Source: Candidatus Methanomethylophilaceae archaeon
GTDB taxonomy: Archaea > Thermoplasmatota > Thermoplasmata > Methanomassiliicoccales > Methanomethylophilaceae
DNA length: 64,000 nucleotides
Assembly (NCBI GenBank): GCA_944320495.1
Contig: CALUHR010000013.1
Location: forward strand, 354,687 to 418,686
Reading direction: 5' to 3'
Shown: in pieces, positions 1,129 to 58,711 of the stretch
Position numbering within the stretch: the stretch's first letter is position 1
Layout of the letters: each line of letters begins with the position of its first letter
Translations under genes and position numbers: made by a program
The notes under the pieces: model-generated
Seen by the model: the letters and a program-made list of their open reading frames with translations, nothing else
What the model was told of the DNA's origin: nothing
Databases searched by the model: none

Positions 1129-1811
1129 CCGCCGAGCAGGATGCCAGGGAGAGGCGCGTCGCATGGGCGATGCTCATAGGATGTCCCCTGTCCTTCATGT
1201 TCATCTCCGTGTTCTCGTTCCTGGGCGTGGCGCCCGGGATCGAGGCAGGGCATCCTCCGATATACCTCATCGCGACTTGCATCGCATGGGCGATAGTGTC
1301 CGTGTTCCTGCCGGCCCTCAGGCTGCTGAGGCTGGTCTCCCTGCCCTCGGCGTTCCTGTTCGTGGTCTACGCGAACATGTACTTCTACGTGGTCTCGCTG
1401 AACGTCGGGCTGTACCTGAACGTCAGCTGGTGGGGGGACATGGGGCATGTCATCTCGTCCACCATCGTCACCATGATCGTCTTCCTGGCACTGTGCATCA
1501 TGGAGGTGTACTCGCCCGCCCACGTGACCTTCGGCAGGAGGGGAGGGATGGCGGCGATGCTGTTCTTCGTCGCCCTCAGCTTCGGCGGGATCTGGGAGAT
1601 GATGGAGGGCTTCGCCGACTTCGCTGGGGGCGGATCCTACATGGTCTACGGTGCCAGCGACACCATGGGGGACCTCACCGCCGACCTGATCGGCGTGATC
1701 ATCGTCACCGCCTGCGCCTACTGGTACCTCGGCAGGAGGGCCCCCGCCGACATCTGCTCTTCCATACGCTTCGGGAGGGGTGCTTTCGTTGTCAGGGAAG
1801 ACGTCGAGCGA
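1122..1811 (+). CDS. DUF2238-like membrane protein, ends at CGA
   Basis: About 229 residues with five or six membrane segments. The stretch GASDTMGDLTADLIG after a WEMMEGFADF helix resembles the DUF2238/YjdF-type family, whose function is unknown. Under the standard code the frame stays open to 2462, 680 bases into the next gene in another frame, which would give an Arg-rich nonsense tail. The first in-frame CGA of the gene is at 1809-1811 (context GAG CGA TCT), just after the next gene's start, where a short overlap would be normal. I therefore place the end there. The start ATG at 1122 overlaps the upstream gene. Confidence 0.6.
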
Positions 1812-6307: not shown

Positions 6308-7663
6308 GTGACATATCTCACGGTCCCGTTCTTCACCTACATATTCGCGGTGCTGCCGGTCTGGCTGCCCCTGCTGGCAACGGACCTGGTGGCGCTGTAC
6401 ATCCTCATATTCAGGGAGAGGCACGACCCGAGGACGCTGATATTCTGGGTGGCGGTGGTGTTCATACTGCCGTTCCTAGGCTTCCTCTTCTACCTGCTGT
6501 TCGGCTGCACGCTGTTCGTCAGACGGTGGGGCTCGCGGAAGGAGGCATCCGACAGGAGGTTCCTGTCGGGCGTCTCGGAGGAGCCCCCGGAGGACGGCCG
6601 CAGGCTGTCCAACGTGCTCTCCAGCGCCGGGGCCGACGTGTACACGTCCGGGAACGGCGTCAGGCTGTTCTGGGACGCTCCGGACTCCTGGGGGACCTGC
6701 ATGGACGCCATCCTCGCTGCCAGCCGCAGCGTGCACATCGAGACCAACAGGCTCCCGGACGACCCGTCCCTGAGGGACATGCTGGCCTCCAAGGCGCGGG
6801 AGGGAGTCGACGTCCGCATCGTCACCGGGACCCGCGGGTTCGGGAGGACCCCCGGTCTCCGCGAGCTCAGGCGCGCGGGGGTCAGGTACACAACCTTCCA
6901 CGGATGGTTCCTCTCTACGTTCTCGCTCAGGGTCGAGAGCCGCTGCCTCAGGGATCTCCTCGTGGTCGACGGCTCTGTGGCGTTCACCTGCCTCGGGTCG
7001 TCGATAGAGGTCGAGGGCAGGGCCGCATCCCGCCTGGACCGCAGGTTCCTCGCCGACTGGGCGTTCGCATCCGGGGAGGCCGTCGACGTCCACGAAGACG
7101 TCCAGTCCTCCGACGGCGGGTGCGGGGTGCAGGTGGTCCCGTCCGGTCCCGATTCGTCAGGGATGGCCATGCTCCACGGGTACTCCGAGATAATATCGGA
7201 GGCGAGGGACAGGCTGTACCTCACGTTCCCGTTCCTGATCCCCAACGACGAGATGTACAACGCCATCAAGCAGGCGGTCATCGCGGGCACCGACGTCAGG
7301 ATACTCATCCCGTCGGTCTGCAGGCACTGGTACCAGCCCTGGAACTCCCTTGCCGCCTCCAACCCGCTCATGCAGGCCGGCGCGAGGGTGTACTTCTCTG
7401 ACACGGCGTCGGTGAGATGCCTCGCCGTGGCGGACGGCAGGGTGCTGGCCATGGGGACCGGCGTCTTCAACTCCAGGTCCCTGTGGGCAGACTACGCGGT
7501 GAACGTGGTCGTCAGGTCGGAGGATGTGGCCAGGGACGCCGAGAGGGCGTTCATGGCCGAGCTCGACGGTGCGGCGGAGTGCCTCCCGGAGGAGTACAGC
7601 CGCAGGTCCTTCGCGGATCGCATCAAGATTGCGGTCGCCAGGATGCTGATGTTCCTGAACCGA
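6308..7663 (+). CDS. Cardiolipin-synthase-like PLD-fold membrane protein with both HKD motifs lost; ends at CGA
   Basis: A 451-residue protein with two N-terminal membrane helices (PWLPLLATDLVALYILIF-type hairpin) followed by two phospholipase-D repeats, the architecture of cardiolipin synthase. The position of the first HKD motif reads LRDLLVVDG and of the second VRCLAVADG: the Asp survives, but His and Lys are replaced in both. It should not have PLD chemistry. The only in-frame CGA lies at 7661-7663, after RIKIAVARMLMFLN, where cardiolipin synthases normally end. The standard code reads on to 7888, through the S6e promoter and into S6e. It may be a lipid-binding or regulatory pseudoenzyme. 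Confidence 0.7.
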
Positions 7664-9924: not shown

Positions 9925-10419
9925 ATGGCATGGCCGTTCGGTAAGAAGGATGAGAAGCCGGTCGAGAACAAGCTGCCGGAGCAGTCCGAGAGGCAGTACA
10001 ACCTGTTCTGGATGATCCGCATGAGCCCGTTCGCCGACCGCTCGGACGAGGAGGTCCAGCAGGCCATCGACAGGAAGATCGCGGAGGTCGAGAGGACCCT
10101 GAGGACCCAGCCCGTCGAGATGGTCCGCGTCAAGAGCGAGAGGAAGGTCGAGAAGCTGAAGGCGCTCTCCGGTGACAGCGCAGCCATCGCCGCCGAGAGG
10201 GACGAGGCCATCCTCCACTTCAACAGGAACATGATCGAGGACAACGGAGGTTCCGTCCCCACCGATCCCGAGAAGATCTCGGCCACCGTGTCCAGGGAGG
10301 GGTGGGCCGACGGGACGGGGCTGGTGGACGTCGATGGGATGCCCCACTGCCCCAGATGCGGCTACATCAACAGGAAGACGAAGGTCTGCGTCAACTGCGG
10401 ATCGAAGCTGAGGCACCGA
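9925..10419 (+). CDS. Zinc-ribbon protein of unknown function, ends at CGA
   Basis: A 164-residue protein: a charged, partly helical N-terminal region, then a C-terminal zinc ribbon (CPRCGYINRKTKVCVNCGSK). I do not recognise the family. Under the standard code it ends at TAA 10449, but the first in-frame CGA is at 10417-10419, ten residues after the last zinc ligand, and a second CGA follows three codons later. No other CGA occurs in frame. The extra standard-code tail is ten residues. A GC-rich hairpin at 10460-10480 follows, between this gene and the convergent cyclophilin. Confidence 0.6.
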
Positions 10420-10965: not shown

Positions 10966-11044
10966 GCACGCTCCATCCGCCCCGTGTCCTTAAACCCTTC
11001 CGCCGACCGTCCCGTTATATCGTCGCATGCCGTGCATGTTCCCG

Positions 11045-12397
11045 ATGGATCCGTTCAGGCTGCAGGACCACGGCACGACGCCGGAGAGGGAGGCTGTCGC
11101 AGGTTTCACCACGTTCCTCTCGATGGCGTACATCCTGGTCACCGTGCCGGGGATACTCTCATCGCCGGACGGGATGCAGTGGGGCGCCGTGTTCCTGGCG
11201 TCGGCGATATCGTCGGCCGTCGGCACCCTCGTCATGGCGCTGTACGCCAACGTGCCGTACGCGCTGGCCCCAGGCCTCGGGATGGCCTCGTTCCTCACGG
11301 TGACCGTGTGCGGTGACATGGGATTCACCTGGCAGGAGGGTCTGTCGATCGTCTTCATATGTGGACTCGTGAACATCGCCATAACCCTGAGCAACGTCCG
11401 CCGCCTGATTATCGCGGCCATACCCCGCAGCCTCCAGCTGGCGATATCCGGGGGCATAGGGCTGTTCCTGGCCTACGTCGGACTGCTGGAGTCCGGCCTC
11501 CTGGACCTGTCGGGGAGCACCCCCGCCCTGGGCGATCTGGCCAGCCCCCAGGTACTGCTGTTCCTCGTCGCCCTCGTCGTGTCGATGCTCCTGTACATCC
11601 GCAACGTCCGTGGGGCGCCGATCATCGCCATCGCGGTCATCGCCCTCCTGGGCATCCCGATGGGCGTGACGCACATGGGTGACAACGTGGGCTTCGGAGA
11701 GGCAGTGTCCCAGCTATGCTCCTCCTTCGGGGCGATCTTCACATCCGAGGGCATACCGGCGCTCTTCTCCGACACCAGCAGGATACTGCTGGCGCTGGTC
11801 GCCATCGTATCATTCAGTCTGGTGGACACGTTCGACACCATCGGGTCGTTCGTGGGGACCGGGAGGAAGGCCGGCATATTCACGGAGGAGGAGATGACGA
11901 CCGCCGGCGATGGCGGGTTCAGGACGCGGATGGACCGCGCCCTGGTGGCCGATTCCGTCGCGACCTCCGTGGGGGCGGTGTTCGGCACCTCGAACACCAC
12001 GACGGTGCTCGAATCGGTGGTGGGGATCTCGCAGGGCGGCAGGACGGGTCTGGCATCCGTGGTGACGGCCGCGTGTATCCTGCTCATAATGCCGGCGGCG
12101 GCACTCATCAGCGTCATACCAGTGCCGGCCTATTCCGCGATCCTGGTGATGGTGGGCGTGATGATGCTCTCGTCGTTCAGGAGCATCGACTGGGAGGACC
12201 TGGGGGAGGCGGTCCCGGCGTTCTTCGCGGGGCTGTTCATCGCCCTCTGCTACAACATCAGCTACGGGATCGGATTCGCGTTCATCGCCTTCTGTCTGAC
12301 CAGGGTGTTCCTCGGCCGTGCCGGGGAGGTCAGCAGGCTGATGTGGGTCGTCTCAGCCCTTTTCGCGGTGATGTTCGCGCTGCAGGCGATCGTGCGA
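11045..12397 (+). CDS. AzgA-type purine (xanthine/uracil family) permease, ends at CGA
   Basis: About 450 residues, 12-14 membrane helices, NCS2/AzgA family. Marks include EREAVAGFTTFLSMAYILV at the N-terminus, PGLGMASFLTVTV, SLVDTFDTIGSFVG and GTSNTTTVLESVVG. It likely imports hypoxanthine, adenine or guanine with protons, and fits with Apt in the same window. A TATATC element at 11015-11020 makes a leaderless start at ATG 11045 most likely; ATGs at 11027 and 11036 are in frame. The only in-frame CGA is 12395-12397, right after the last helix. The standard code runs to 13537, antisense through all of RFC. The end abuts the RFC end. Confidence 0.75.
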
Positions 12398-13459
12398 TCG
12401 CGAGAAGCCTCGCCTGCGCTTCCTTCCGGACATCGCCACATAGGCGAGCAGATGTTCCAGCTGCACCCTCTCGAGGGGCATGCCCATGCCCCCGGACCCG
12501 CACTGGGCTATGCGGAAGTCCGTCTCCCCGACCTTGTCCAGGAGCCTCACGGCCTCCGCCCCCTCCAGCCCGAGCTCCAAGGCCTGCCTCTGGATCTCCG
12601 TGGCGATCTCGCGGCAGGTCATGCCCTCGCCGATGAGCAGCCCGTCCAGCGCGTCCCTGGCGGCCATGAAGTCGCCCGAGCGTGCCTTGGAGAGCATGTC
12701 CCTGACCCCGTTGGAGGAGCGGGTCTCGGACACGGCGAAGACCGCGTCGAGGTCCACGCGGCCTCTGGTCACGGCGGCCGCCTGGAGCATGGCCATCGCC
12801 CTCCTGATGTCCCCGTCGGCGGCCATGGCGATACCGTCCGCCGCCCCGCGGTCCAGTTCGACGCCCTCGGACTCTGCGACCTCGACGATGCGCTTCGAGA
12901 GGTCGGCGCGGGGTATGGGGACGAACCTGACGACCCCGCACCTGGACCTCACGGGGTCGATTATCATGGACTGGTGGTTGCAGGCGAGGATGAACATGCA
13001 GTTGCGGGAGTAGACCTCCATGGTGCGCCTGAGGGCCTCCTGCACCTCCTTGGACATCGTGTCGACCTCGTCGATGAAGACGACCCTGAACCTGACTCCG
13101 TCTATCGATGCCGTGGACACGAACTCCTTGATTCTCCAGAGGGGGCTGTCCATCGTCTTGGTGACGGTCCTGACGGTCGTCTCTCCCTCGTCATCGGTCT
13201 CCGTGACGGTGACCTCGCGTTTCTTGGTGAGGTCGGAGGCGTCGATCTCCAGGAAGTTGCCCTCGATGTTGCCCTCCAGGACCTCCCTCGCGACGATGAG
13301 CGCGCAGGTGGTCTTGCCGGTCCCCGGGGGGCCCGCCAGGAGGAGGTGCGGCACGCTCTGCTGGGACGTCAGCGGTCTGAGCCTCTCGACGGCCATCGGC
13401 TGGCCCACGATCCCGTCCAGGGATGTCGGCCTGTACTTCTCCATCCAGACGGACTCCAT
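12398..13459 (-). CDS. rfcS: Replication factor C small subunit, ends at CGA
   Basis: A 353-residue clamp-loader ATPase. It shows EKYRPTSLDGIVGQ, Walker A GPPGTGKT (residues 43-50), Walker B VVFIDEVD and the SRC arginine-finger motif. It loads PCNA (gene at 36441) on primed DNA together with a large subunit not seen here. Between Walker A and B there is an insertion of about 25 residues rich in Thr, Glu and Lys. The only in-frame CGA (12400-12398) follows the tail KRRRGFS; the standard code adds 15 residues to 12353. This CGA is the reverse strand of the same CGATCG that ends the permease. Confidence 0.88.
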
Positions 13460-13553: not shown

Positions 13554-14354
13554 ATGAACGGCATGGACGACATCGCGGAGGATCTGAGGGTGGTGTCGGA
13601 CGGGACGAGGTTCTCGATCCTGGCCATCCTCCTCAGGCACGACATCTGCTCCGGGGCCCTGGCACGCAGGCTGGGGATATCCGAGGCGGCCGTGTCCCAG
13701 CACATGAGGGTGCTGAGGGAGGCCGGTTTCGTCACTCCCGTCCGCCGCGGGTACTTCACCCACTACGAGGTGGACCGCGACAGGATCCGCATGCTGGCAC
13801 ATGCTCTGGAGGCCATGTCCCTGAGCGACCGCGCCCCATGCGACCCGGTCCTCGAGGGATGTGACAGGAAGGGCCGCGGGAGCTGCCGGTCGGCGGTCCC
13901 CGGTGCCGGATGTCCCAGGATGGAGGGCGGTGAGCCCCCTTGCCCGGGGTGCCGCCGCTGCATGACAGAGAGAAGGTCGGGAATCATGAGGGTAGCAGCC
14001 ACATACGAGAACGGGGAGGTCTTCCAGCACTTCGGGAGGACGCAGCAGTTCAAGGTCTACGATATCGAGGACGGGAGGGTGGTCTCGTCCGCGGTCCATG
14101 GGACCGGCGGCAGGGGTCACGGCGAGCTCATCAATGTGCTGAGGGAGCTCGATGTCTCCGCGCTCATCTGCGGGGGCCTCGGGGGCGGTGCGATGCAGGG
14201 GCTCGAGGCTTCGGGCATACGTGTCGTGCCGGGATGCTCCGGGGATGCGGACGCCGCCGTGCAGGCGTTCGCCGAGGGGAGGCTGGAGGGACCCACGGGG
14301 CCCACCTGCGACCACCACGGCGAGGGTCACCAGTGCTCCTGCGGGAGGCACCGA
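13554..14354 (+). CDS. ArsR-family regulator fused to a NifX/NifB-type cofactor-binding domain, ends at CGA
   Basis: A 266-residue fusion. Residues 5-85 form an ArsR winged helix (GALARRLGISEAAVSQHMRV). Residues 95-140 are a Cys-rich linker with eight cysteines, including CPGCRRC. From residue 145 there is a dinitrogenase iron-molybdenum cofactor (NifX/NafY-like) domain (VAATYENGEVFQHFGRTQQF), ending in a His/Cys tail CDHHGEGHQCSCGRH. No start or stop separates the halves. It may sense a metal cluster and control transcription. The only in-frame CGA (14352-14354) comes right after the His/Cys tail; the standard code continues to 16562 antisense to Cdc48. Confidence 0.72.
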
Positions 14355-16553
14355 TCGCCCGTAGAACGGGACCGAGTCCCAGCCGGTGCGGCGCCTCCTT
14401 ATGCGCCGGCCGGCGTCCTCGTACCCGTCCATGACCTCCTTGGTCACGGACGGCATCACGAGCCCCAGCGCCGCATCGAAATGACGCTGGCACACCTTCG
14501 CGGCCCCGGGGTCCTCGCGGTAGGCGGCCAGTCCCGCCTCGCGGCACACCGAGGCGAGGTCCGCGCCGGTGTAGCCGTCGGTGGACCTCGCGACCGCATC
14601 CAGGTCCACGCCGTCCAGAGGCATCCTCTTTGTGTGCACCGCCAGTATGCTCCTGCGGGCCCTCTCGTCGGGCTTCCCCACGAGGACGAGCCTGTCGAAC
14701 CTGCCGGGCCTCAGCAGGGCCGGGTCTATCATGTCCGGGCGGTTGGTGGCGCCCATGACGGTCACGTTGCGCATGCCCTCGACCCCGTCCATCGAGGTGA
14801 GGAGCTGGGCGACGACCCTCTCCCATGCGGAGCCGTCCCCCGCTCCGCGGATGGGGGCGATCGAGTCCAGCTCGTCGAAGAATATGATGCAGGGGGCCAT
14901 CTGCTTGGCCCTCTTGAAGATCTGACGGATGGCGCGCTCGCTCTCGCCCATCCACTTGCTGGCCATCTCGGGACCGTTGACCGAGATGAAGTTGGTCCCG
15001 GACTCGTTGGCCATCGCCTTCGCTATCAGGGTCTTGCCGGTCCCGGGCGGTCCGTAGAGCAGGACCCCCTTCCCCGGCTCGATGCCGAGCCTCTCGCAGG
15101 GGTTGCCCTCCTCGGTGGACAGCACCTCGCGGATCTGCGCCCTCACATCGTCCAGGCCCCCGACGTCCTCCCAGGTGACCTTGGGGATCTCGACCAGCAC
15201 CTCGCGCATGCCACTGGGCTCCACGTCGGACAGCGCAGCCCTGAAGTCGTCCATGGACACGCGCATGCTCTCGAGGATCTCCGACGGGACCTTCCGGTCC
15301 AGGTCGAACTCCGACATGCGGGCGCTGAGGCAGTGCATGGCGGCCTCCCTGCAGAGGGCGGCCAGGTCGGCGCCCACGAAACCCTGGGTCATGGAGGCGA
15401 GCGCGTCCGGGGTGACGTCCTCGGTCAGTGGCATCTCCCTCAGGTGGACGGAGAGGATGTCCGCCCTCGCCTTCCTCCCGGGAATCCCGACCTCGATCTC
15501 CCTGTCGAACCTTCCAGGGCGTCTCAGCGCCGGGTCGATGGAGTCCTCCCTGTTGGTGGCGCCGATGACTATGACGTTCCCCCTGTCCCCGAGGCCGTCC
15601 ATCAGGGTGAGGAGCTGGGCCACCACCCTGCGCTCCACCTCGCCAGAGACCGCGTCCCTGCTGGGGGCGATGGAGTCTATCTCGTCCAGGAACACGATGC
15701 TGGGTGCGCTCTCCTCCGCCTTCTTGAATATCTCCCTCAGGCGCTCCTCGCTCTGGCCGTAGTACTGGCCCATGATCTCCGGTCCGCGGACCGAGAACAG
15801 GGTGGCGCCCGACTCGTTGGCGACCGCCTCGGCCATGAGGGTCTTCCCTGTGCCGGGCGGTCCGTAGAGGAGTACGCCCCTCGGGGCCCCTATGCCCAGG
15901 CGCTCGAAGAGCTCCGGATGCTTCAGGGGGAGCTCTATCATCTCACGGATGCGCTTCAGCTCGTCATCCAGGCCGCCCACGTCGTCATAGGTGATCTGAT
16001 GGCCGGTCTGGCTCTTCGCCGTCTCACGCTTGCGGGGACCGTCCCTGACGACAACCTTGGTGGATTCCGTGACGATGACCGGTCCCTTCGGGACGGTGGA
16101 TGCGACCGAGAACGTGGAGCGGTTGCCCATGAGGGCGATGTTCGGCACGATGATGTCCGTGTCCGCCACGAGGGGGCGGTTGAGGAGCCCCCGGAGGAAG
16201 ATCTCCTCGATCCCGTCCTCGAACCTGATGCGCTTGCCCTCGGGGATGTTCGGGGAGAGGACGACCTGCTCGGCGGGGGCGGGGTCGCATCTCCTCACGG
16301 TGACGCTCTCGTCCACGCTGACCCCCGCGTTGGTCCTGGTGAGGCCGTCTATCAGCAGCAGGCCGCGGCCCTCGTCCGTCTGGTCGCCCTTGAAGACCTT
16401 GGCGACGACGGTGCGCTTCCCGACGATCTCGATGGTGTCCCCCAGCTCCAGACCGAGGGCCCTGCGGGACTCGGAGTCCATCCTAGCCCTCCCATATCCC
16501 GCCTCGGACTGGGACCTGGCCATCGCGACTTTCAGGACGATCGAATCGGACAT
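14355..16553 (-). CDS. cdc48: Cdc48/VAT AAA+ unfoldase, ends at CGA
   Basis: A 732-residue AAA+ ATPase of the Cdc48/p97/VAT family, a hexameric unfoldase feeding the proteasome. An N-domain of about 190 residues (double-psi barrel) precedes two AAA modules, each with GPPGTGKT, Walker B ([10 protein letters not shown] and [10 protein letters not shown]) and arginine fingers. Full length for the family ends at about residue 730, exactly where the only in-frame CGA stands (14357-14355, after WDSVPFYG). I read all codons and found no other CGA. The standard code would add 270 residues antisense to the ArsR-NifX gene, to 13542. Confidence 0.9.
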
Positions 16554-16583: not shown

Positions 16584-17390
16584 TCATCGCGGTCCCGATC
16601 GCTCCCGCAGGCTTTCCATGGCGTCCGCCGCGTGGGCCCTGAACAGGTCCCTGAACTCGGGGTACTCGCCCATGCCGCGAACGATGCAGCGGGGGTTGTA
16701 CCCGGCCGCGGCCATGACGCTCCTGAGGGAGTCCTCCTCGTCCCCGGCGAGGTCGTTGTTGGCGTGGTCCCCGGCGACGATCATGAGCGGGAACATCGCG
16801 ACATCCTTGCGATCACAGCCCTCCATGAGGCCGAGGGTGCTGTCGTAGTCGGGGAAACCCTCCACCGTCGTGACGTAGACGTCCCTGCGGCCGGAGGCGA
16901 TCAGCCTGAGCTGGAGCTCGCTGTACGCCGAGTTCGCGAAGTGGGTGGTGCCGTGGCCCATGAGCACCATGGCGTCGCCTTCCGCCTCGGGGCCGTATGC
17001 GGCCCCGATCGCCTCGATGAGGGCGTCGAAGTCCTCGGAGGTCGTCAGGAGAGGCCTCCCGACGGTGATGGCGTCGAACCTGTCTCTGCGCCTCTCCACC
17101 TCCTCCATCATGTAGTCGTACTCGACGCCGTTCATCACGAGCGTGGGCTGGACCACCACGGTCCCGTAGCCCTCGTCGGCCAGCCTGTCCAGGGCGGCAT
17201 CGACGAAGTCGACGTGGATGCCCCTCTTCTCGAGGATCCTTATCACCGGACGGCTGGTGAACGCCCTCCTGACATCCCATCCGGGGAAGGATTCTGCGAT
17301 GTGCCTCTCGATGGCGCCGATGGTCTTCTCGCGGGTATCATCGTAGCTCGTCCCGTAGCTGGCGACGAGGATGGCCTTCTTTTCCGACAT
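16584..17390 (-). CDS. cbiK: Anaerobic sirohydrochlorin cobaltochelatase
   Basis: A 268-residue CbiK-type class II chelatase inserting cobalt into sirohydrochlorin at the start of the anaerobic cobamide route. The N-terminus AILVASYGTSYDDTREKTI and the motif VLMGHGTTHFAN with the metal-binding His are diagnostic; a second His lies in the C-terminal half (VAGDHANND). No signal peptide. ATG 17390 is chosen over upstream in-frame starts because homologues begin at MSEKKAIL. It is 30 bases upstream of cdc48 on the same strand. TGA stop. Confidence 0.9.
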   Translation of the reverse strand: MSEKKAILVASYGTSYDDTREKTIGAIERHIAESFPGWDVRRAFTSRPVIRILEKRGIHVDFVDAALDRLADEGYGTVVVQPTLVMNGVEYDYMMEEVERRRDRFDAITVGRPLLTTSEDFDALIEAIGAAYGPEAEGDAMVLMGHGTTHFANSAYSELQLRLIASGRRDVYVTTVEGFPDYDSTLGLMEGCDRKDVAMFPLMIVAGDHANNDLAGDEEDSLRSVMAAAGYNPRCIVRGMGEYPEFRDLFRAHAADAMESLRERSGPR

Positions 17391-21925: not shown

Positions 21926-23796
21926 GGATGGCCGTCTTCCCGTACCCCTACCGTCCCGGCCAGAGGGAGCTGGTCTCCTTCATAGACCGCTCCGCCCGGG
22001 ACGGCATGTGTCCCGTCGTCGAGGCGGGGACGGGCACCGGGAAGACCGTCTCCTCCCTGGCCGGCATGCTCCCGCTGGCCGGGGAGCGGGACCTCAAGAT
22101 AATCTATCTGACGCGCACGAAGTCCCAGCAGGCGCAGGTCCTGCGGGAGTGCTCCGCCATCGGCGGGGTCGTGTGCATCGGCCTCCAGGGCCGCTCCGCC
22201 TCCTCCTGTCCGATGATGAGGGACGACCCGGACCTCAGGTCAGGCACCCCGGAGGAGATCTCGAAGCTGTGCTCCGAGCTGAAGCGCAGGACCGAATCCG
22301 GATGCGCCTGCCCGTACTTCGCCAACCTCGAGGGTGCGGACGAGGAGCACTGGCTCTCCGTCCTGTCGCAGGAGGGCATGACGCCGGAATCGTCCTCCGA
22401 GGTGTGCGAGGAGGCGGGACTGTGCCCGTACGAGCTCCTCAAGCACCTCCTGCCGAGGGCGGACGTCATCGCCGCCTCGTACCCGTTCATGTTCGTGCCG
22501 CCCATACTCGCGAGGTTCGAGGAGTGGGTGGGCGTGCCGGTGGAGAGGATGCTCGTCATCGCCGACGAGGCCCACAACCTCCCCGACTACCTGCGCGAGG
22601 TGCAGACCTACGAGTACAGCAGATGGTCCATGGACATGGCCGAGAAGGAGTCCAGGGAGTTCGGGGACCGGGAGATCCACCAGGGGATCACCGTCTCGGA
22701 CGTGGCCGCCGTGCTGAGGGAGATACTGGAGGCCACGGCCAAGGAGTACCTGATCGACGAGGACGGCATCATCCCCCCGCACTTCGTGGAGGACGAGCTG
22801 ATGGCCCGCCTCGGGGTGACGTCGGTCGGCCTCGGGAGGATCTCGAGGGGCCTGACGGACCTGGGGGACGTCATCGAGGAGCAGAGGAAGCAAAGGCGCA
22901 AGCTGCCCCGCTCCTACATCGGGATGATGGGGAGGTTCCTCGACGCGTGGATGTCGGAGGAGGACCCCAGCTGCGTCCGCCTGGTTATCGGAGGCACGAA
23001 CCCCTGCTTCCAGTCCTACTGCATGGATCCAGCCCCGGCGGCGGAGCCGCTGAACGCGTGCCACTCGGCGCTGCTGATGTCGGGGACGCTGGAGCCTCTG
23101 GAGGACTATGTACGGGAGATGGGCATCGAGAGGCCGGCGATCCGCCGCCAGCCCAGCGCGTTCGACCCTGGCCATCTCCTCACGCTGTACACCGACAGGG
23201 TGTCGATGAAGTACGAGGAGAGGTTCCTCGAATCCAACTATGCGGCGCTGAGGTCGCTCCTCCTCGACACCGTGAACTCCGTCCGCGTGAACACGGCGGT
23301 GTTCTTCCCGTCCTACGACCTGATGGACAGGATGGTGTCCGAGGGCATCGTCGACGCCCTGGGCAGGGACGTGTACTTCGAGCGGAGGGGCATGCCGCAG
23401 GGGGAGCTGATGGAGACCTTCGACCAGTTCAGGACCTCCGAGGGGAGCGTCCTCTTCTGCGTGACCGGCGGCAGGATGAGCGAGGGCCTCGACTTCCCGG
23501 ACAAGGCCCTGGAGCTCGCGGTGCTGATCGGGATACCGTATCCGAAGCCCACGGCCAAGTCCAGGGCCATGGTGCGCTACTACGACCGCCGCTTCGGGGA
23601 CGGGACGAAGTACGTGACGAGGATCCCGGCGGAGCGCAAGATGCGCCAGTCCATCGGCCGTCTGATAAGGTCGGAGACGGACCGCGGGGTGGCGGTCATA
23701 CTGGACCGGAGGGTCGTCTCCATGGATCTCGGGGCGATGCTCTGCTCCGACATACCCTCGGCGGTGGCCGCGTTCCTCTCCGAAGGCCGGTCGCGA
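21922..23796 (+). CDS. xpd: XPD/Rad3-type Fe-S DNA helicase, ends at tandem CGA
   Basis: A 624-residue superfamily 2 helicase unwinding DNA 5' to 3' in repair. It shows Walker A VEAGTGTGKT, four cysteines of the Fe-S domain (SSCPMM, SGCACPYF, AGLCPYEL region), the DEAH box VIADEAHN, and C-terminal motifs V and VI (RMSEGLDF; QSIGRLIRSETDRG). The frame ends CGA CGA TAG (23794-23802): the first CGA follows LSEGRS and no other CGA is in frame. It is the only gene, with Taw2, whose standard end would be TAG. The start ATG overlaps the upstream stop (ATGA). Confidence 0.88.
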
Positions 23797-24557: not shown

Positions 24558-25187
24558 TCAGGCGCCGTCCAATCTGGCCGCATCGACCGAGGCCCTGGCG
24601 AGCGCATCGATGTCGACGGCAGCGCTCATCTCCGCCACCTTGGCGGGGTCCGCCTCCGTGACGGGGTGGATGGGAACGATGGAGCATCCGTGACCCGGTC
24701 TGATGGATATGTCATAGGTCCCGATGTCCTTGGCTATGGCCTCGATCTCGAGCTTGTCCATGCCGATGAGCGGTCTGACGACGGGGAAGTCGAGACCCTG
24801 GTTCTCCGCGCGTATGTTGCGGAGCGTCTGCGAAGCGACCTGTCCGAGCGAGTCGCCCATGACGATCCCGGAGCATCCGAGCCTTCTCCCCAGCTCCCTC
24901 GCCGTCCTCTGCATGACGCGCTTGCACATGACGCACTGATAGGGATGGGGGCAACCATCGTGTATCGCGTCCTGTGACGGCGCGTGGGGGGCGATCCAGA
25001 GCGGGAGCTCCTGTCCGGTGGATTCCCTGAGCGCGTCTGCGATGTCCCTGACGTCGTCCAGCTGGACCGGTCCGGAATAGGGGGTGTTGTCCATGTGGAG
25101 GAGGACGACCTCGGCTCCCACGGAGCACATTCTGTGGACGGCGACCGGCGAGTCGATCCCGCCGGACATCAATGCGATGAGCCTCAT
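24558..25187 (-). CDS. ThiI-like PP-loop sulfurtransferase lacking THUMP and rhodanese domains
   Basis: A 209-residue AANH/PP-loop protein. MSGGIDSPVAVHRM is the ATP pyrophosphatase loop; the CVMCKRVM motif and GDSLGQVASQTLRNI match the catalytic domain of ThiI, which adds sulfur to uridine 8 of tRNA. The N-terminal THUMP domain and C-terminal rhodanese are absent, as in some archaeal forms that rely on partner proteins. The ATG at 25187 overlaps the csl4 stop by four bases, so it is cotranscribed with csl4 and the methyltransferase: an RNA-modification and decay operon. Confidence 0.8.
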   Translation of the reverse strand: MRLIALMSGGIDSPVAVHRMCSVGAEVVLLHMDNTPYSGPVQLDDVRDIADALRESTGQELPLWIAPHAPSQDAIHDGCPHPYQCVMCKRVMQRTARELGRRLGCSGIVMGDSLGQVASQTLRNIRAENQGLDFPVVRPLIGMDKLEIEAIAKDIGTYDISIRPGHGCSIVPIHPVTEADPAKVAEMSAAVDIDALARASVDAARLDGA

Positions 25188-25750
25188 CGGAGGACCACGT
25201 CGCCGTAGTCGTCCGCCAGCTTCCTGGGAATGGCGTACCTGCACTCGGGGCAGTACAGGCCCTCGCCCTTCTTGTCGCGGACCATCTCGGTCTTGCACTT
25301 GGAGCAGAGCGCCCTGATGCATCCGAGGTGCTTGTCCTTGGTGGCGAGCTGGAGGGAGGGCTTGGTCTCGGTGACGACCGCCCTGATGTAGTCGCCCTTG
25401 CGGAGCTCCTTGGACACGTCGTCGGTGTACTTGGGGGAGATCTTGGACACGTGGAGGGTCGCGTAGGTCTCCCCTCCCACGTTCTTGCTGGTGCCCTCCT
25501 TGGCCACGACGTCCGCGGTGGCCATGGTGCTCCTGATGTCGGCCACGACCGCGTAGACGACGTCCCCCTTCTTCAGGATGTTAGGGGGGTTGGGGCAGAC
25601 GACGGATGCGGTGCACTCGTCGTCGTCCAGAACGAGGGTGCCGACCTGGGACGCGTAGACGGTACCGTTGTCCGCGAAGGTCCCCTCTCCCGCGGCGTAC
25701 TCCTCTTCCACGGCGACCTCGTCGCCGGGCATGACGAACCTGGAATCCAT
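25184..25750 (-). CDS. csl4: Exosome RNA-binding subunit Csl4
   Basis: A 188-residue Csl4: N-terminal domain (FVMPGDEVAVEEEYAAGEGT), an S1 domain in the middle (GDVVYAVVADIRSTMATADV), and a C-terminal zinc ribbon (CSKC, then YCPEC). It caps the archaeal exosome together with Rrp4 and recruits substrates and DnaG. ATG 25750 follows an AGGTGATT ribosome-binding site; the GTG at 25759 is less likely. It is flanked by METTL5-like and ThiI-like genes in the usual archaeal arrangement. Confidence 0.94.
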   Translation of the reverse strand: MDSRFVMPGDEVAVEEEYAAGEGTFADNGTVYASQVGTLVLDDDECTASVVCPNPPNILKKGDVVYAVVADIRSTMATADVVAKEGTSKNVGGETYATLHVSKISPKYTDDVSKELRKGDYIRAVVTETKPSLQLATKDKHLGCIRALCSKCKTEMVRDKKGEGLYCPECRYAIPRKLADDYGDVVLR

Positions 25751-30208: not shown

Positions 30209-30771
30209 GCAGGATAGTCGCCGTGGTGGCCAGCCCGCGCGAGGAGGGGAACTCCAACGCGATCGTGGACGCCATCCTCGAAGGGGCCATGGGCCTCTCC
30301 ACCAACATCATCGACCTCTACGCCCTCGACGGCCTCCGGCTCGTCCACGGCTGCAGGGGATGCAGGGCCTGCAAGACGTCGGGGAGATGCGCCCAGGACG
30401 ACGAGATCTCCGACGTGCTGGAGGCCATCCGCGAGGCGGACTGCGCGGTGTTCTCCACGCCGGTGTACTTCGCGGCCGAGTCCGCCCAGTTCAAGGTCCT
30501 GGAGGATCGCATGTTCTCGTTCATCGGAGCCGACGGCAAGCCGAACCTGGAGCCCGGCAAGAGGGCGATCCTGGTGGTCACCTGCAGCGGCCCGGAGGAT
30601 GCGGCGGCGGCCGCGACGGTCGAGCGCCTCTCGGCGATAATCCCTCGGCTGGGTTTCGACCTCACGGATACGATCGTGTTCTCGGATGCCGGAGGCACCC
30701 GTCGCGCGGCCGACGACGCTGACCTCATGGCGAGAGCGAAGGCCGTCGGTCTCTCGATGAGGAACACCTGA
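30205..30771 (+). CDS. NADPH-dependent FMN reductase-like iron-sulfur flavoprotein
   Basis: A 188-residue flavodoxin-fold protein. VVASPREEGNSNAIVD is the FMN phosphate loop, and the cluster CRGCRACKTSGRC with CxxC-x2-C-x5-C spacing matches the compact Fe-S site of archaeal iron-sulfur flavoproteins that carry electrons and reduce oxygen or peroxide. STPVYFAAESAQFK contacts the flavin. It is translationally coupled to the MarR gene. Its TGA stop forms TGATCG, directly abutting the CGA that ends the convergent XRE gene. Confidence 0.82.
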   Translation: MSRIVAVVASPREEGNSNAIVDAILEGAMGLSTNIIDLYALDGLRLVHGCRGCRACKTSGRCAQDDEISDVLEAIREADCAVFSTPVYFAAESAQFKVLEDRMFSFIGADGKPNLEPGKRAILVVTCSGPEDAAAAATVERLSAIIPRLGFDLTDTIVFSDAGGTRRAADDADLMARAKAVGLSMRNT

Positions 30772-30987
30772 TCGCTCCTCGTCGTCCTCGACGTACTCCA
30801 GGATGTCCCCCGGCTGGCAGTCGAGGGCCTTGCATATCCCGTTCAGCGTCGAGAATCTTATCGCCGCGATCTTCCCGGTCTTGATGTTGGACAGGTTGAC
30901 GTTCGATATCCCGACCTTCTCGGCCAGCTGGTTGAGCTGGATCTTGCGGTCGGCCATGACCCTGTCCAGGCGGAGTATTATCGTCAT
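30772..30987 (-). CDS. XRE-family (Cro/CI) regulator, ends at CGA
   Basis: A 71-residue single-HTH protein of the YozG type: MADRKIQLNQLAEKVGIS and LSNIKTGKIAAIRFSTL are the HTH, and CKALDCQPGDILEYV the last helix. Family members end a few residues later. The only in-frame CGA, 30774-30772, follows EDDEE at that point and abuts the convergent flavoprotein stop. Under the standard code the frame continues antisense to 30109, into the MarR gene. It lies five bases after the DUF2975 gene, the common pair of small regulator and membrane partner. Confidence 0.8.
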
Positions 30988-31823: not shown

Positions 31824-32633
31824 TCACCCGCATCGGTTTAGGTCCATGCCGAACACGACGGACGGTGCCGCGTATGTGATCGATCCCAGGGAGACGATGT
31901 CCGCCCTGCCGATGTACGCCGGGATGTCGTCCGGGGAGATCCCTCCGGAAGCTTCGACGAGGATGCGGTCGCTGACCGCCTTGACGGCGTCGCGGATCTG
32001 TCCGGTCAGCTCGGGACCGCAGTTGTCGGCCATGACGATGTCCGCTCCCATCTGGGCGGCGGTGACGGCGTCGTCGACGTTCTCCACCTCGACCTCCACC
32101 TTCACGGCGAAGGACCTCTTGGAGAGTCTCTCCATGCAGGCGCGGACGCCCCCGCACGCCTTGATGTGGTTGTCCTTGACCATGATCATGGAGTCGAGGC
32201 CCATCCTATGGGGGTCGCCACCAGCGATCCTCACTGCCTCCTTCTCGAAGTCGCCGAACCCGGGGGTGGTCTTCCTGGTGGCCGCGACGACGATTCTCCC
32301 GTCGGCCTTCGCGACGGCCGCGGAGGTCGCGGTGGCGACCCCCGACATCCTCATCAGGATGTTCAGGGCCGTGCGCTCGATGGTTATCATGGACCTCATG
32401 GGTCCGGAGAGGGAGAGGACCCTCGTGCCGGCCGCGACCCTGTCCCCGTCCCTCACGAGGGGCGTCACGGACACCCCGGCGGACTCGAACAGGTCCTCCA
32501 CGATCGAGATCCCGGCGACGGTGCAATCGCCCTCGCAGACGATGCGGGCGGTGCCGTCCGTGTCCGGGACCGTCAGCTCGGTGGTGATGTCGCCGCGGCC
32601 CACATCGGCCCTGAGGAACCTCTCCGCGTCCAT
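31824..32633 (-). CDS. nadC: Quinolinate phosphoribosyltransferase
   Basis: A 269-residue NadC forming nicotinate mononucleotide from quinolinate and PRPP in de novo NAD synthesis. Signatures: DVGRGDITTEL near the N-terminus, ALNILMRMSGVATAT, ATRKTTPGF and VEVEVENVDDA, ending with EASGGISPDDIPAY. Length fits. It lies 3 bases after the beta-CASP RNase gene on the same strand. ATG 32633 is used; GTG 32639 overlaps the upstream stop. NadA and NadB are not in the window. Confidence 0.95.
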   Translation of the reverse strand: MDAERFLRADVGRGDITTELTVPDTDGTARIVCEGDCTVAGISIVEDLFESAGVSVTPLVRDGDRVAAGTRVLSLSGPMRSMITIERTALNILMRMSGVATATSAAVAKADGRIVVAATRKTTPGFGDFEKEAVRIAGGDPHRMGLDSMIMVKDNHIKACGGVRACMERLSKRSFAVKVEVEVENVDDAVTAAQMGADIVMADNCGPELTGQIRDAVKAVSDRILVEASGGISPDDIPAYIGRADIVSLGSITYAAPSVVFGMDLNRCG

Positions 32634-40726: not shown

Positions 40727-41754
40727 GGCGCGTGCCGATGGCCGAGGTGCCCTCGCGGATCGCGGGGGAGACGATAAACAGGCTGATGTCCCTCGGATAC
40801 GTGGACATCCACGCCAGGATAGCGAAGGGCGACGGCTGCCGTCTGGTGCCGATACTGCCGGAGCACGTGGACGACGTCTCCGCGATGGGGTTCGCCATCA
40901 CGGAGGGAGACGCCCATTCGCTGGACCGCAGGACGCCCCAGGAGAGGATCTCGGAGATCCTCGGGGGCATACCTGAACTGAGGGGTCATCTGCCCGACCG
41001 CTGGGAGTTCGTCGGTGACATCGTCATCCTGAAGCTGGACCCGTCCTGCGAACCGTATCTCGACGGCATCGGTGACGCCTATGCGAAGGTGCTCGGCGCC
41101 AAGACCGTGTGCGCGGACGTCCACGGCGTGTCCGGGGAGTTCCGTCAGCCCAGCATGAGGGTGATCCACGGCACCGAGACCGAGTCGGTGCGTCTCGAGA
41201 ACGGCATCCGTTACCGCTTCGACGTCACCAAGGTCATGTTCGCCTCCGGCAACACGGACGAGCGCATGCGCATGAGGAGCCTGGACTGCACCGGCGAGAC
41301 CGTCGTGGACATGTTCGCTGGCATAGGGTACTTCACCCTCCCGCTGGCCAGGTTCTCTGGGGCCCGCAGGGTCTTCGCCTGCGAGAAGAATCCCGAATCC
41401 TACCATTATCTGGTGGAGAACGTCCGTCTCAACGAGGTGGGCGATGTGGTGCTGCCCATGCTCGGTGACAACCGCTCCATCCCGGGCAGGGACTTCGCGG
41501 ACCGCATCCTGATGGGGTACGTGCAGACGACATCGGAGTTCCTGCCGGCGGCCCTGAGGATGATACGCATCGGCGGGATCATCCACTACCATGACACCTT
41601 CCCGGTGGGCGACCAGGCCCGCAGGGTCGACGAGATCTTCTCGCCGCTCTGCGGATACGAGGTCCTGGGGATCCGCGAGGTGAAGTCCTTCGCCCCGTCG
41701 GTGTCCCATTACGTCGCCGACGTCAGGATAACTTCTCGTTCGCCCCGCAGGCGA
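40723..41754 (+). CDS. taw2: tRNA wybutosine-type transferase Taw2 (Trm5/Tyw2 family), ends at CGA
   Basis: A 343-residue Rossmann-fold enzyme. The SAM motif DMFAGIGYFTLPLA and the N-terminal domain place it with TYW2/Taw2, which transfers the aminocarboxypropyl group of SAM to guanosine 37 derivatives of tRNA-Phe; Trm5 usually has DMFAGVGPF. The FPVGDQARRV region is near the end. The standard-code stop would be TAG at 41770-41772; the first in-frame CGA, 41752-41754, precedes it by five codons. The 3' end overlaps the convergent gene at 41723 by about 30 bases. ATG 40723 overlaps the GGR stop. Confidence 0.82.
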
Positions 41755-45323: not shown

Positions 45324-46835
45324 ATGAGACTGACCGCCGAGAACTACGACATCGGCATCGCCGAGCCGACGGCGTTGCTGCACGAGGACGACTGCAGGAT
45401 CATCGGGATCCGCGAGGGCGACCACGTCCGCATCGAGGGGCGCGGATGCGTCACCGCGATAGCCAGCATGTCGGACACCCTGGTGAGGCGGGGCACGGTC
45501 ATGATAGCCTGCGGGGTGCTCGGCGCCAGTTGCATCCACCCCGGCGATGAGGTGGAGGTCACCGCCGCGCCGATCCCGGAGTCCGTGAGGGCCATCCGCG
45601 GCAAGATGGACGGGGAGGAGCTGTCCCCGGAGGAGATCTCGCAGATCGTCGACGACGCGGTCCATGACAGGCTGTCGAGGATCGAGACCTCCGCATGGCT
45701 CACCGCCCTACACATACGCGGCATGTCCATGTGCGAGACGGCGTCCTACACCAGTGCCATGGCGTCCACCGGCTCGGTCCTGGACTTCGGGGACCGCCGC
45801 GTGTTCGACTTCCATAGCTTCGGAGGGGTCCCGGGCAACAAGATCACACCGATCGTGGTGTCGATCGTCGCGTCCGAGGGCCTGCTGATCCCGAAGCTCT
45901 CGTCGAGGGCCATAAGCAGTGCCTGCGGGACGGCCGATTTCGTGGAGGTGTTCTGTCCGGTGACCCACGGCTCGGACGATGTCCGCAGGATCGCGGAGTC
46001 CGAGGGCGGGGTGTTCTCCTGGACAGGTGCCACCGACCTGGCCCCCGCCGGGGACCGCTTCATCAGGGTCCAGCGTCCGCTCGGTATCGATCCGAAGCCG
46101 CAGATGCTCGCGTCGATCATGGCGAAGAAGGTCGCTGCCGGTGCCACCGATGTGCTCATGGACATCCCGATGGGGTCCGAGACCAAGGTCAGGTCCCCGG
46201 AGGAGGCCAAGGCCTACGCCCGCGACCTGATGGAGCTCGGGGACCTGCTGGGCATGAGGGTGGAGTGCGCGGTCACGTACGCGGACCAGCCCCTGGGCGT
46301 CGCCGTCGGGCCCGCGCCGGAGGCGAGGGAGTGCATCCAGGTGCTCGAGAACAGGCCGGGCCACGAGGAGGTGGCCGAGAAGGCATGCATCTGCGCCGGG
46401 ATGATCCTGGAGATGGCCGGGATGTGCGACGGCACCGTCCGCGCGAGGGAGTGCCTGACGTCCGGCCGCGCCCTGGAGAGGTTCAGGGCGATCGTCCGCG
46501 CCCAGGGCGGTATGGACGGGATAACTTCCGAGGACGTACGGCTGGGGCGCTTCTCCGCCGATGTCGTCTCGCCGAGGGACGGTTTCGTCAACCGCATATC
46601 GAACAGGGCCGTGGTCTCCGTGGCGAAGGCCGCCGGTGCCCCGGCGGACAAGGGCGCCGGGCTCGTGCTCTCGAGGAAGCGCGGGAGGAAGGTCGCGAAG
46701 GGCGACGTGCTCATGACGGTGTACTCGGACAGCGAGGACAAGCTGGAGGACGCGCTGGAGGCGGCCGCGGAGCTGGAGCCGTTCGACATCGACGGGATGC
46801 TGCTGGACAGGATCAGGCCCGGCTCCCTCCGATGA
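45324..46835 (+). CDS. deoA: AMP phosphorylase
   Basis: A 503-residue thymidine phosphorylase-family enzyme with an archaeal N-terminal extension of about 80 residues, typical of AMP phosphorylase, which converts AMP to adenine and ribose 1,5-bisphosphate in the pathway to RubisCO type III. Signatures: GNKITPIVVSIVASEGLLIPK, SSRAISSACGTADF, and PAGDRFIRVQRPLGID. Apt at 59211 would recycle the adenine. The ATG is 10 bases after the CGA that ends the upstream gene, with GAGGT as ribosome-binding site. Confidence 0.92.
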   Translation: MRLTAENYDIGIAEPTALLHEDDCRIIGIREGDHVRIEGRGCVTAIASMSDTLVRRGTVMIACGVLGASCIHPGDEVEVTAAPIPESVRAIRGKMDGEELSPEEISQIVDDAVHDRLSRIETSAWLTALHIRGMSMCETASYTSAMASTGSVLDFGDRRVFDFHSFGGVPGNKITPIVVSIVASEGLLIPKLSSRAISSACGTADFVEVFCPVTHGSDDVRRIAESEGGVFSWTGATDLAPAGDRFIRVQRPLGIDPKPQMLASIMAKKVAAGATDVLMDIPMGSETKVRSPEEAKAYARDLMELGDLLGMRVECAVTYADQPLGVAVGPAPEARECIQVLENRPGHEEVAEKACICAGMILEMAGMCDGTVRARECLTSGRALERFRAIVRAQGGMDGITSEDVRLGRFSADVVSPRDGFVNRISNRAVVSVAKAAGAPADKGAGLVLSRKRGRKVAKGDVLMTVYSDSEDKLEDALEAAAELEPFDIDGMLLDRIRPGSLR

Positions 46836-47136: not shown

Positions 47137-47213
47137 GCCCGCGTGGGGTAGCTTGGATATCCTGTGAGATTGCGGATCTCTTGACCCGGGTTCGAATCCC
47201 GGCGCGGGCACCA
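47137..47213 (+). tRNA. tRNA-Arg (GCG)
   Basis: Acceptor GCCCGCG pairs with CGCGGGC, discriminator A, and CCA is encoded at 47211-47213. The T arm is CCGGG-TTCGAAT-CCCGG. The anticodon stem TGAGA/TCTCT (one U-U mismatch at 27-43) encloses loop TTGCGGA, giving anticodon GCG at 47172-47174, reading CGC and CGT. No intron. CTTAACCAAA upstream serves as promoter element. Confidence 0.85.
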
Positions 47214-48037: not shown

Positions 48038-48250
48038 ATGGAAGGGGAGGGGTTCAGAACGGCCAGGATATGCTTTTCGGACGGGTCCGTGGACGCGGTC
48101 CAGGATCAGACGATCGAGGACGCGGTCCGGTCGTCGGGCCGCATCCCCGATTCCTATGTTTATCTCATCGCCGGACGCCCGGTGCCGATGGACGCCGTCC
48201 CTCCAGAGGATTCTGAGGTCCGGGCGATGAGGGTCGCCTCGGGCGGATGA
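48038..48250 (+). CDS. SAMP/ubiquitin-like sulfur carrier protein with C-terminal Gly-Gly
   Basis: A 70-residue beta-grasp protein ending RVASGG. The core ARICFSDGSVDAVQDQTIEDA and SYVYLIAGRPVPMD match small archaeal modifiers and sulfur carriers (MoaD/ThiS/SAMP2-like), which are adenylated by an E1-like enzyme and attached to Lys residues or used for tRNA thiolation. ATG 48038 is taken; a longer in-frame start at 47948 lacks conserved sequence. Its TGA is the first half of TGATCA, whose second half ends the convergent RqcH gene. Confidence 0.75.
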   Translation: MEGEGFRTARICFSDGSVDAVQDQTIEDAVRSSGRIPDSYVYLIAGRPVPMDAVPPEDSEVRAMRVASGG

Positions 48251-58630: not shown

Positions 58631-58702
58631 GGCCCTGTGGGGTAGCGGATATCCCGTCAGATTTCGGCACTGACAATCCGGGTTCGATTCCCGGCAGGGC
58701 CG
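58631..58702 (+). tRNA. tRNA-Arg (TCG), unusual anticodon stem and no encoded CCA
   Basis: Acceptor GGCCCTG/CAGGGCC pairs perfectly; discriminator G; T arm CCGGG-TTCGATT-CCCGG is intact. The anticodon stem TCAGA/ACTGA has four pairs and an A-A clash at 31-39. Loop TTTCGGC gives anticodon TCG (58664-58666), the cognate of CGA and, by wobble, CGG. The 3' end reads GCCT, so CCA is not encoded, unlike the two other tRNA genes here. The AT-rich TTAATTATG at 58601-58609 may be its promoter. Confidence 0.75.
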
Positions 58703-58711
58703 CCTGTTTCT

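What the first reader, a model, noticed from the sequence alone, without database searches (positions are those of the whole stretch)
12395..12400. Two convergent gene pairs end on one shared CGATCG palindrome, parallel to the TGATCA that ends a third pair
Seen directly: AzgA/RFC (12395-12400) and ArsR-NifX/Cdc48 (14352-14357) both have CGA-TCG so that each strand reads CGA as its terminal codon and the ends abut with no overlap. At 48248-48253 SAMP-like/RqcH end on TGATCA with the same geometry. At 30769-30774 flavoprotein/XRE end on TGATCG, one strand TGA and the other CGA. The series TGATCA, TGATCG, CGATCG differs only at the outer bases, as expected if T and C are interchangeable there. 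This independently supports CGA being equivalent to TGA at these ends.
Basis: seen in the sequence. Interest (0 to 1): 0.85.

Follow-up and report, generated by a model that had tools for sequence, protein, structure and literature searches.

The report
CGA stop codon in gut archaea
In this gut methanogen about a quarter of all genes end on CGA, which elsewhere codes for arginine, and CGA has vanished from inside genes except for one site in the gene for the protein that recognises stop codons, so a sense codon of a free-living organism seems to have become a stop signal.

Summary
The finding is real and larger than stated. Two of the four cited sites abut as described on CGA and one on TGA/TGA; at AzgA/RFC the RFC frame meets a CGA 12 bases earlier (12410-12412). 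Across the 0.73 Mb of the genome I read, CGA ends 180 of 710 predicted genes (25%). In-frame CGA is followed by non-coding sequence as often as TGA (91.5% vs 91.2%). Relatives' own TGA/TAA stops fall within 3 codons of the CGA end in 82% of alignments (TGA ends 87%, internal-codon control 2%). In 44,336 conserved interior codons there is one CGA, and it lies in the release-factor gene aRF1. Its position (Arg78) is CGA in 24 of 25 readable species of the genus; in Methanomethylophilus and allies the lone aRF1 CGA is at Arg25. A tRNA(UCG) is kept (window 58631-58704). The exception, G028, lost the aRF1 CGA, shows no tRNA(UCG), and ends 43-48% of genes on CGA. Best explanation: aRF1 terminates at CGA, and its single in-frame CGA is an autoregulatory sensor read through by tRNA(UCG), like bacterial prfB. 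Sense-to-stop reassignment was known only from organelles. Mechanism is inferred; no protein or ribosome data were available.

The parts
12395..12397 (+). CGA ending the AzgA-like permease (gene 11027-12397)
   Evidence: Pfam PF00860 on 11027-12394; 379 codons to the next TAA/TAG/TGA
12410..12412 (-). First in-frame CGA of the RFC small-subunit-like gene (13459-12410): the likely end
   Evidence: Pfam AAA and Rep_fac_C
12398..12400 (-). Second in-frame CGA of the RFC frame, 4 codons after the first; the one named in the finding
14352..14354 (+). CGA ending the ArsR-NifX fusion gene (13554-14354); its only in-frame CGA
14355..14357 (-). CGA ending Cdc48 (16553-14355), abutting the ArsR-NifX end
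   Evidence: 270 codons of readthrough otherwise
30769..30771 (+). TGA ending the FMN-reductase-like flavoprotein (30205-30771)
30772..30774 (-). CGA ending the XRE/HTH_26 protein (30987-30772), abutting
   Evidence: 220 codons of readthrough otherwise
48248..48250 (+).
48251..48253 (-). TGA ending RqcH/NFACT (50182-48251), abutting
   Evidence: ARAGORN, Rfam RF00005 55.7 bits; relatives
47137..47213 (+). tRNA-Arg(GCG), reads CGC/CGU
1809..1811 (+). CGA ending gene 1122-1811
   Evidence: 216 codons of readthrough otherwise
7661..7663 (+). CGA ending gene 6308-7663
   Evidence: 74 codons of readthrough otherwise
10417..10419 (+). CGA ending gene 9925-10419
16599..16601 (-). CGA ending gene 17390-16599
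23794..23796 (+). CGA ending gene 21922-23796, followed directly by another CGA and TAG
25187..25189 (-). CGA ending gene 25750-25187, followed directly by TGA
31833..31835 (-). CGA ending gene 32633-31833
41752..41754 (+). CGA ending predicted gene 40723-41754
   Evidence: codon-usage call only
46830..46832 (+). CGA ending gene 45324-46832, followed directly by TGA
62194..62196 (-). CGA ending gene 63741-62194

Best explanation
In this genus of Methanomethylophilaceae, and more sparingly in Methanomethylophilus and its allies, CGA has changed from an arginine codon to a stop codon used beside TGA and TAA. Shown from sequence: CGA ends genes, is missing inside them in frame 0 only, and exchanges with TGA at orthologous ends. 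Inferred: the archaeal release factor aRF1 recognises CGA, as a near-cognate of UGA with C for U at position 1, and out-competes a kept but odd tRNA(UCG). Also inferred: the single CGA kept near the start of the aRF1 gene is an autoregulatory sensor. When aRF1 is plentiful it terminates its own synthesis at CGA; when scarce, tRNA(UCG) inserts Arg and full-length aRF1 is made. This would explain why the tRNA survives when CGA is otherwise gone from genes.
For: CGA behaves as TGA at the edge of coding potential (CGA n=117, 91.5% followed by non-coding; TGA n=296, 91.2%; CGT 11%, CGC 9.5%, CGG 34%). Adding CGA as a stop raises gene number, coverage and coding score and lowers overlap, whereas CGT, CGG or AGA as stop does not improve coverage. 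Relatives' own standard stops coincide with CGA ends (82% within 3 codons; TGA 87%; control 2%). Interior CGA: 1 of 44,336, in aRF1; five relatives other than the sister species have none or only the aRF1 one in about 125,000 codons. Depletion is frame-0 only (G014: 0 observed vs 145 expected; frames 1 and 2 near expectation). aRF1 codon 78 is CGA in 24 of 25 readable genus members and is the only CGA of the gene; the context is always (G/T)CT-CGA-CTN, so base +4 is C, as nearly always in bacterial prfB. The Methanomethylophilus clade keeps one aRF1 CGA at another place: codon 25 in 11 species, codon 11 in the basal one; elsewhere there are 0 interior CGA in 29,297 codons and all 9 other in-frame CGA lie at gene ends. 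G028, which lost the aRF1 CGA (CGC), shows no tRNA(UCG) and has the highest CGA-stop share, 69 of 160 homology-defined ends. Precedent: eRF1 terminates at slowly decoded sense codons, and CGA stalls ribosomes, in Neurospora extracts (PMC6755126).
Against: No experiment: termination at CGA, readthrough of the aRF1 CGA and the amino acid inserted are inferred. The cognate tRNA is not lost in most species, unlike in the organellar cases read here. No aRF1 substitution is shared by all CGA-stop species and absent elsewhere: G28S occurs only in G000 and G008, T63 also in CGA-sense Methanoplasma relatives. In the Methanomethylophilus clade the sensor is followed by G, not C. The absence of tRNA(UCG) in G028 rests on an 87%-complete genome.
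Confidence: 0.85

Rival explanations
1. C-to-U editing of mRNA turns terminal CGA into UGA; the codon CGA itself is still arginine.
For: The change CGA to UGA is a single C-to-U, and such editing makes stop codons in plant organelles (own knowledge). It would explain why all non-standard ends are CGA and not other codons.
Against: Editing at chosen sites would not require removal of CGA from the inside of genes, yet frame-0 CGA is gone while frames 1 and 2 are near expectation. About 180 sites in 0.73 Mb would need recognition with no shared motif beyond a mild T preference at +4. The lone CGA in aRF1 and the fate of the tRNA in G028 are not explained.
Confidence: 0.05
2. CGA is a stalling codon, not a stop: ribosomes halt for lack of efficient tRNA(UCG) and are released by rescue factors (Pelota, RqcH pathway).
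For: tRNA(UCG) has a weakened anticodon stem in the genus, and C33 in one clade. CGA stalls ribosomes in yeast, E. coli and Neurospora (PMC6755126). RqcH and Pelota are present.
Against: A quarter of genes, including conserved ones such as Cdc48, would depend on rescue and might receive tails. The single CGA inside aRF1 fits sensing of release-factor level better than sensing of stalling.
Confidence: 0.08
3. Gene-calling or assembly artefact: CGA is merely a rare Arg codon near C-termini and the frames run on.
For: At 63% GC, open frames run far in all phases, so frame ends alone prove little; some CGA ends have a TGA a few codons later.
Against: Relatives stop at the same place; the same pattern is found independently in G028, G026, G008 and the Methanomethylophilus clade; outgroups use CGA as ordinary sense codon with the same methods (G033 11 interior, 0 ends; Methanoplasma clade 0 of 23 at ends).
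Confidence: 0.01

Closest known systems
Sense-to-stop reassignments of organelles (AGA/AGG in vertebrate mitochondria; UUA/UUG in pedinophyte mitochondria; UUA/UCA in peDinoflagellate plastids, PMC12574857)
   Same: A former sense codon now occurs only at gene ends and is absent inside genes; a release factor is the presumed reader.
   Different: Here it is the chromosome of a free-living archaeon with an eRF1-type factor and about 1.8 Mb, not an organelle with few genes; the codon is CGA; the cognate tRNA is kept in most species. PMC12574857 calls the plastid case the first outside mitochondria.
CGA/CGG reassignments found by Codetta in Absconditabacteria, Peptacetobacter, Anaerococcus and RFN20 Bacilli (PMC8629427)
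   Same: Arginine CGN codons, made rare, change meaning.
   Different: Those become Trp or Gln in low-GC bacteria; here CGA becomes a stop in 50-63% GC archaea. The Codetta paper reports no sense-to-stop change in the passages read, and a method that asks which residue a codon aligns to would see only too few CGA.
Autoregulation of bacterial release factor 2 (prfB in-frame UGA-C, PMC5009743)
   Same: Release-factor gene interrupted early by an in-frame codon that its own product reads as stop; base +4 is C in this genus.
   Different: prfB needs a +1 frameshift; here the frame is unchanged and a tRNA(UCG) would insert Arg; the protein family is unrelated (aRF1, not RF2).
Mimivirus/Megavirus class-I release factor with readthrough and frameshift stops (PMC3521657)
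   Same: An eRF1/aRF1-family gene carrying an internal stop in weak context, proposed to be autoregulatory by readthrough.
   Different: Viral gene with standard stops (UGA-C readthrough plus a UAG or UAA frameshift stop); here a cellular gene and a reassigned codon.
eRF1-mediated premature termination at rare codons in Neurospora (PMC6755126)
   Same: An eRF1-type factor terminates at slowly decoded sense codons, in competition with tRNA.
   Different: There a low-level side reaction that lowers yield; here CGA is a normal gene terminator.

Membership tests
Sense-to-stop codon reassignment | The codon occurs at gene ends where homologs have standard stops | tested here: met
   (82% within 3 codons, control 2%); in relatives
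Sense-to-stop codon reassignment | The codon is absent from the interior of conserved genes | tested here: met
   single exception in aRF1. A few further CGA in one poorly conserved gene of some relatives
Sense-to-stop codon reassignment | Cognate tRNA lost | tested here: not met
   tRNA(UCG) present in G000 and at least 26 of the other genus members by sequence or pattern match; not found in G028, G013, G016 and G017, all incomplete genomes
Sense-to-stop codon reassignment | Release factor changed in its codon-recognition region | tested here: inconclusive
   G28S next to the GTx motif in G000 and G008 only; NIRS for NIKS in G001; T63 and I111 not exclusive
Sense-to-stop codon reassignment | Release of peptide at the codon shown biochemically | not testable with these tools
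   Needs in vitro termination assay or ribosome profiling
Release-factor autoregulation by in-frame stop (prfB type) | In-frame stop early in the release-factor gene, conserved across species | tested here: met
   CGA at codon 78 in 24 of 25 genus members; codon 25 in 11 of 12 of the Methanomethylophilus clade
Release-factor autoregulation by in-frame stop (prfB type) | Weak context, C after the stop | tested here: inconclusive
   C in all 24 genus members with the CGA; G in the codon-25 species
Release-factor autoregulation by in-frame stop (prfB type) | +1 frameshift needed for the full product | tested here: not met
   aRF1 continues in the same frame after CGA
Release-factor autoregulation by in-frame stop (prfB type) | Expression falls when release factor is plentiful | not testable with these tools
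   Needs reporter assay
CGN sense-to-sense reassignment (Codetta type) | CGA aligns to another amino acid inside conserved proteins | tested here: not met
   Only 1 interior CGA in 44,336 codons, at a conserved Arg

The most novel reading that the evidence does not exclude
First sense-to-stop change in the genome of a free-living organism, caught at several stages in one family. Standard Arg CGA in Methanoplasma relatives; CGA purged and rarely used as stop, often with a nearby back-up stop, in Methanomethylophilus, G014 and G007; heavy use in G000 and G026; and completion in G028, where the aRF1 CGA and apparently tRNA(UCG) are gone. In the intermediate stages a tRNA is maintained essentially to read one codon in one gene, that of the release factor it competes with.
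Probability: 0.7. Interest if true: 0.97.

Novelty: new variant of a known kind. Interest (0 to 1): 0.94.

Why it matters
A sense codon that became a stop has been reported only for organelles with tens of genes. Here it affects a quarter to a half of the genes of whole archaeal chromosomes, in animal-gut methanogens with named relatives (Methanomethylophilus). It makes a long-standing question, how a codon can change meaning without killing the cell, directly testable because relatives show the steps, including a natural sensor of CGA termination inside the release-factor gene. Practically, standard gene calling fuses antisense tails onto many of these proteins or misses the neighbouring genes, so public annotations and metaproteomics of these gut archaea are likely wrong for many genes. 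It also suggests that an aRF1/eRF1-type factor may accept C at the first stop position, which bears on termination engineering.

Tried and rejected
TAG looked like a sense codon in the first codon-usage test, but homology showed no interior TAG: those TAG probably sit mostly in antisense shadow frames (antisense of CTA); TAG is probably Pyl since PylS is present, but I did not test this further. The idea that aRF1 G28S causes the change was dropped as a general cause, since G028 and G026 use CGA stops without it. A first tRNA pattern search used a wrong gap and found only other tRNAs and noise; corrected. Extending proteins through the stop to see where homology ends did not discriminate, because extensions align past TGA ends as well; replaced. 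GATC methylation and read-level variation were not pursued because the assemblies of several species agree.

Full report
WHAT WAS CHECKED. The window is part of contig C13 of a 1.77-Mb, 14-contig archaeal genome. aRF1 comparisons place it in Methanomassiliicoccales, family Methanomethylophilaceae, in a genus that includes MAG UBA71; its nearest relative G008 corresponds to contig CASFYI010000033. Pfam supports seven of the eight genes when they are cut there; the 100-aa frame before RqcH has no Pfam match. Under the standard code AzgA, Cdc48, ArsR-NifX and XRE run on by 200 to more than 700 codons antisense through their neighbours. One correction: RFC meets an in-frame CGA at 12410-12412 before the CGATCG, so that pair is separated by 12 bases.

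CGA ENDS GENES GENOME-WIDE. I trained a codon-usage score on segments bounded by any of TAA, TAG, TGA and CGA, giving those codons no weight, and asked what follows each codon when the 40 codons before it are strongly coding. CGA (117 cases) is followed by non-coding sequence in 91.5%, TGA (296) in 91.2%, TAA (17) in 82%; CGC 9.5%, CGT 11%, CGG 34%. Gene calling with CGA as an extra stop gives more genes, higher coverage (0.872 vs 0.829 for the standard code), a higher total score and less overlap; CGT, CGG or AGA as stop lowers coverage. CGA ends 142 of 533 genes on C13, 18 of 105 on C2 and 20 of 72 on C1. The strongest single test is homology: for G000 genes with relatives in G014, G007, G027 or G033, the relative's own TAA/TAG/TGA lies within 3 codons of the G000 end in 82% of 67 alignments for CGA ends, 87% of 247 for TGA ends, and 2% of 129 controls cut at internal CGG/CGT.

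CGA IS GONE FROM INSIDE GENES. In 44,336 well-aligned interior codons of G000 there is one CGA, against 37 CGG, 120 CGT, 932 CGC, 118 AGA and 1547 AGG. In relatives: G028 0 of 38,346; G014 0 of 48,088; G008 0 of 16,462; G027 0 of 5,149; G026 1 of 14,083; G007 1 of 19,938, both in aRF1. The other genus G033 has 11 of 14,477 and no CGA ends among 56. The 0 for G014 and G008 does not count their aRF1 CGA, which one search shows is there; a truncated aRF1 query took that stretch. The depletion is a property of the reading frame: G014 shows 0 CGA in frame 0 against 145 expected from dinucleotides, but 935 against 1077 and 3270 against 3422 in the other frames. That argues for a change at the level of decoding and against RNA editing at chosen sites.

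THE ONE EXCEPTION IS THE RELEASE FACTOR. The lone interior CGA is codon 78 of the aRF1 gene (conserved Arg; human eRF1 Arg81 by my own count). Codon 78 is CGA in 24 of 25 readable genus members, and is the only CGA of the gene in each; the context is (G/T)CT-CGA-CTN throughout. In Methanomethylophilus and allies the gene again holds exactly one CGA, but at codon 25 (11 species) or codon 11 (the basal L172); in 29,297 interior codons of this clade all 11 CGA are in aRF1, and the 9 other in-frame CGA all stand at gene ends. In the neighbouring Methanoplasma/UBA72 clade CGA is an ordinary sense codon (0 of 23 at ends). One CGA kept in the same gene at different positions points to selection for a CGA in the release-factor message rather than for a residue. 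The obvious parallel is prfB, where an in-frame UGA followed nearly always by C makes RF2 synthesis sense RF2 level (PMC5009743). Here no frameshift is needed: a tRNA(UCG) would carry the ribosome through.

THE tRNA. A tRNA(UCG) lies in the window (58631-58704). It is found in most genus members. By my reading of the cloverleaf its anticodon stem has only four pairs: a 31/39 mismatch in most, a 27/43 mismatch plus C33 instead of U33 in the G007 clade; the related genus G032 has five pairs. Four-pair stems alter decoding in other systems (PMC13092985). That it is charged with Arg is inferred from the conserved Arg at codon 78.

STAGES. Share of CGA among homology-defined ends: G014 4%, G007 7%, G027 11%, G008 15%, G026 30%, G028 43%; G000 25% by gene calling, and G028 176 of 370 by gene calling. 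In G014 and G007 almost all CGA ends have a standard stop within 11 codons, whereas in G026 and G028 about half or more run further than 30 codons. G028, the deepest branch of the genus in the aRF1 tree, has CGC at codon 78, no CGA in aRF1, and no tRNA(UCG) found, as expected if the change is complete there; its genome is 87% complete, so loss of the tRNA is likely but not proven. G000 and G008 alone carry Gly-to-Ser just before the Thr of the GTx stop-recognition motif of aRF1; this may strengthen CGA reading in that lineage but cannot be the general cause.

THE HEXAMERS. Exact abutment is the commonest geometry of convergent pairs in G000 (18 of 113) and G028 (10 of 66, of which 9 CGATCG). 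CGA is over-represented at abutting ends in G000 (23 of 36 stops against 25% overall; binomial P about 1e-6). I do not know why. CGATCG is a palindrome that stops both strands at once.

MECHANISM AND ITS STANDING. Shown: CGA is a gene end, and is absent as a sense codon outside aRF1 to the depth sampled. Precedent for the first is that eRF1 terminates at slowly decoded sense codons in Neurospora extracts (PMC6755126). Rivals (editing, stalling with rescue, artefact) are listed with tests.

NOVELTY. [quoted passage not shown] Codetta (PMC8629427) reports sense-to-sense changes of CGA/CGG; a review of archaeal code variants (PMC9499178) does not mention CGA. Nine literature searches found no report of CGA as stop in a cell. 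The library lacks bioRxiv and most subscription papers, so prior publication cannot be excluded.

Noticed in passing
L069 (G000:C2:85942-87135) and L096 (G008): aRF1 reads GRSTELIS where every other aRF1 with this motif readable has Gly before TEL; a G28S change beside the stop-recognition motif unique to these two genomes.
   Followed up: partly
L100 (G001 aRF1): NIKS motif is NIRS in this one species, a change at the lysine of the motif thought to read the first stop base.
   Followed up: no
L331-L337, L252: In the G007 clade tRNA(UCG) has C33 in place of the near-universal U33, plus a 27/43 mismatch.
   Followed up: partly
L103, L105, L101, L171 (homologs of G000 gene C2_91, an HTH-like protein close to aRF1): This poorly conserved gene carries an in-frame CGA at two different places in several species where CGA is otherwise absent; possibly a second CGA-sensing gene.
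   Followed up: no
G000 and G028, convergent gene borders: CGA is over-represented at exactly abutting ends (23 of 36 in G000; 19 of 20 in G028), for which I have no explanation.
   Followed up: partly
G000 and G028, gene ends: CGA stops are followed by T more often than TGA stops are (60% vs 29% in G000; 44% vs 27% when the next gene is over 30 bases away).
   Followed up: partly
window 1-64000: YGATCR sites are depleted (115 vs 166 +/- 11 in shuffles).
   Followed up: no
L342 (G000:C9:67854-68522): Pyrrolysyl-tRNA synthetase present, so TAG is probably pyrrolysine and this genome would combine a stop-to-sense with a sense-to-stop change.
   Followed up: partly
L188, L192 (another genus), L191: aRF1 again holds a single CGA (codon 78 or 50) while no other interior CGA was seen; these lineages may share the system.
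   Followed up: partly
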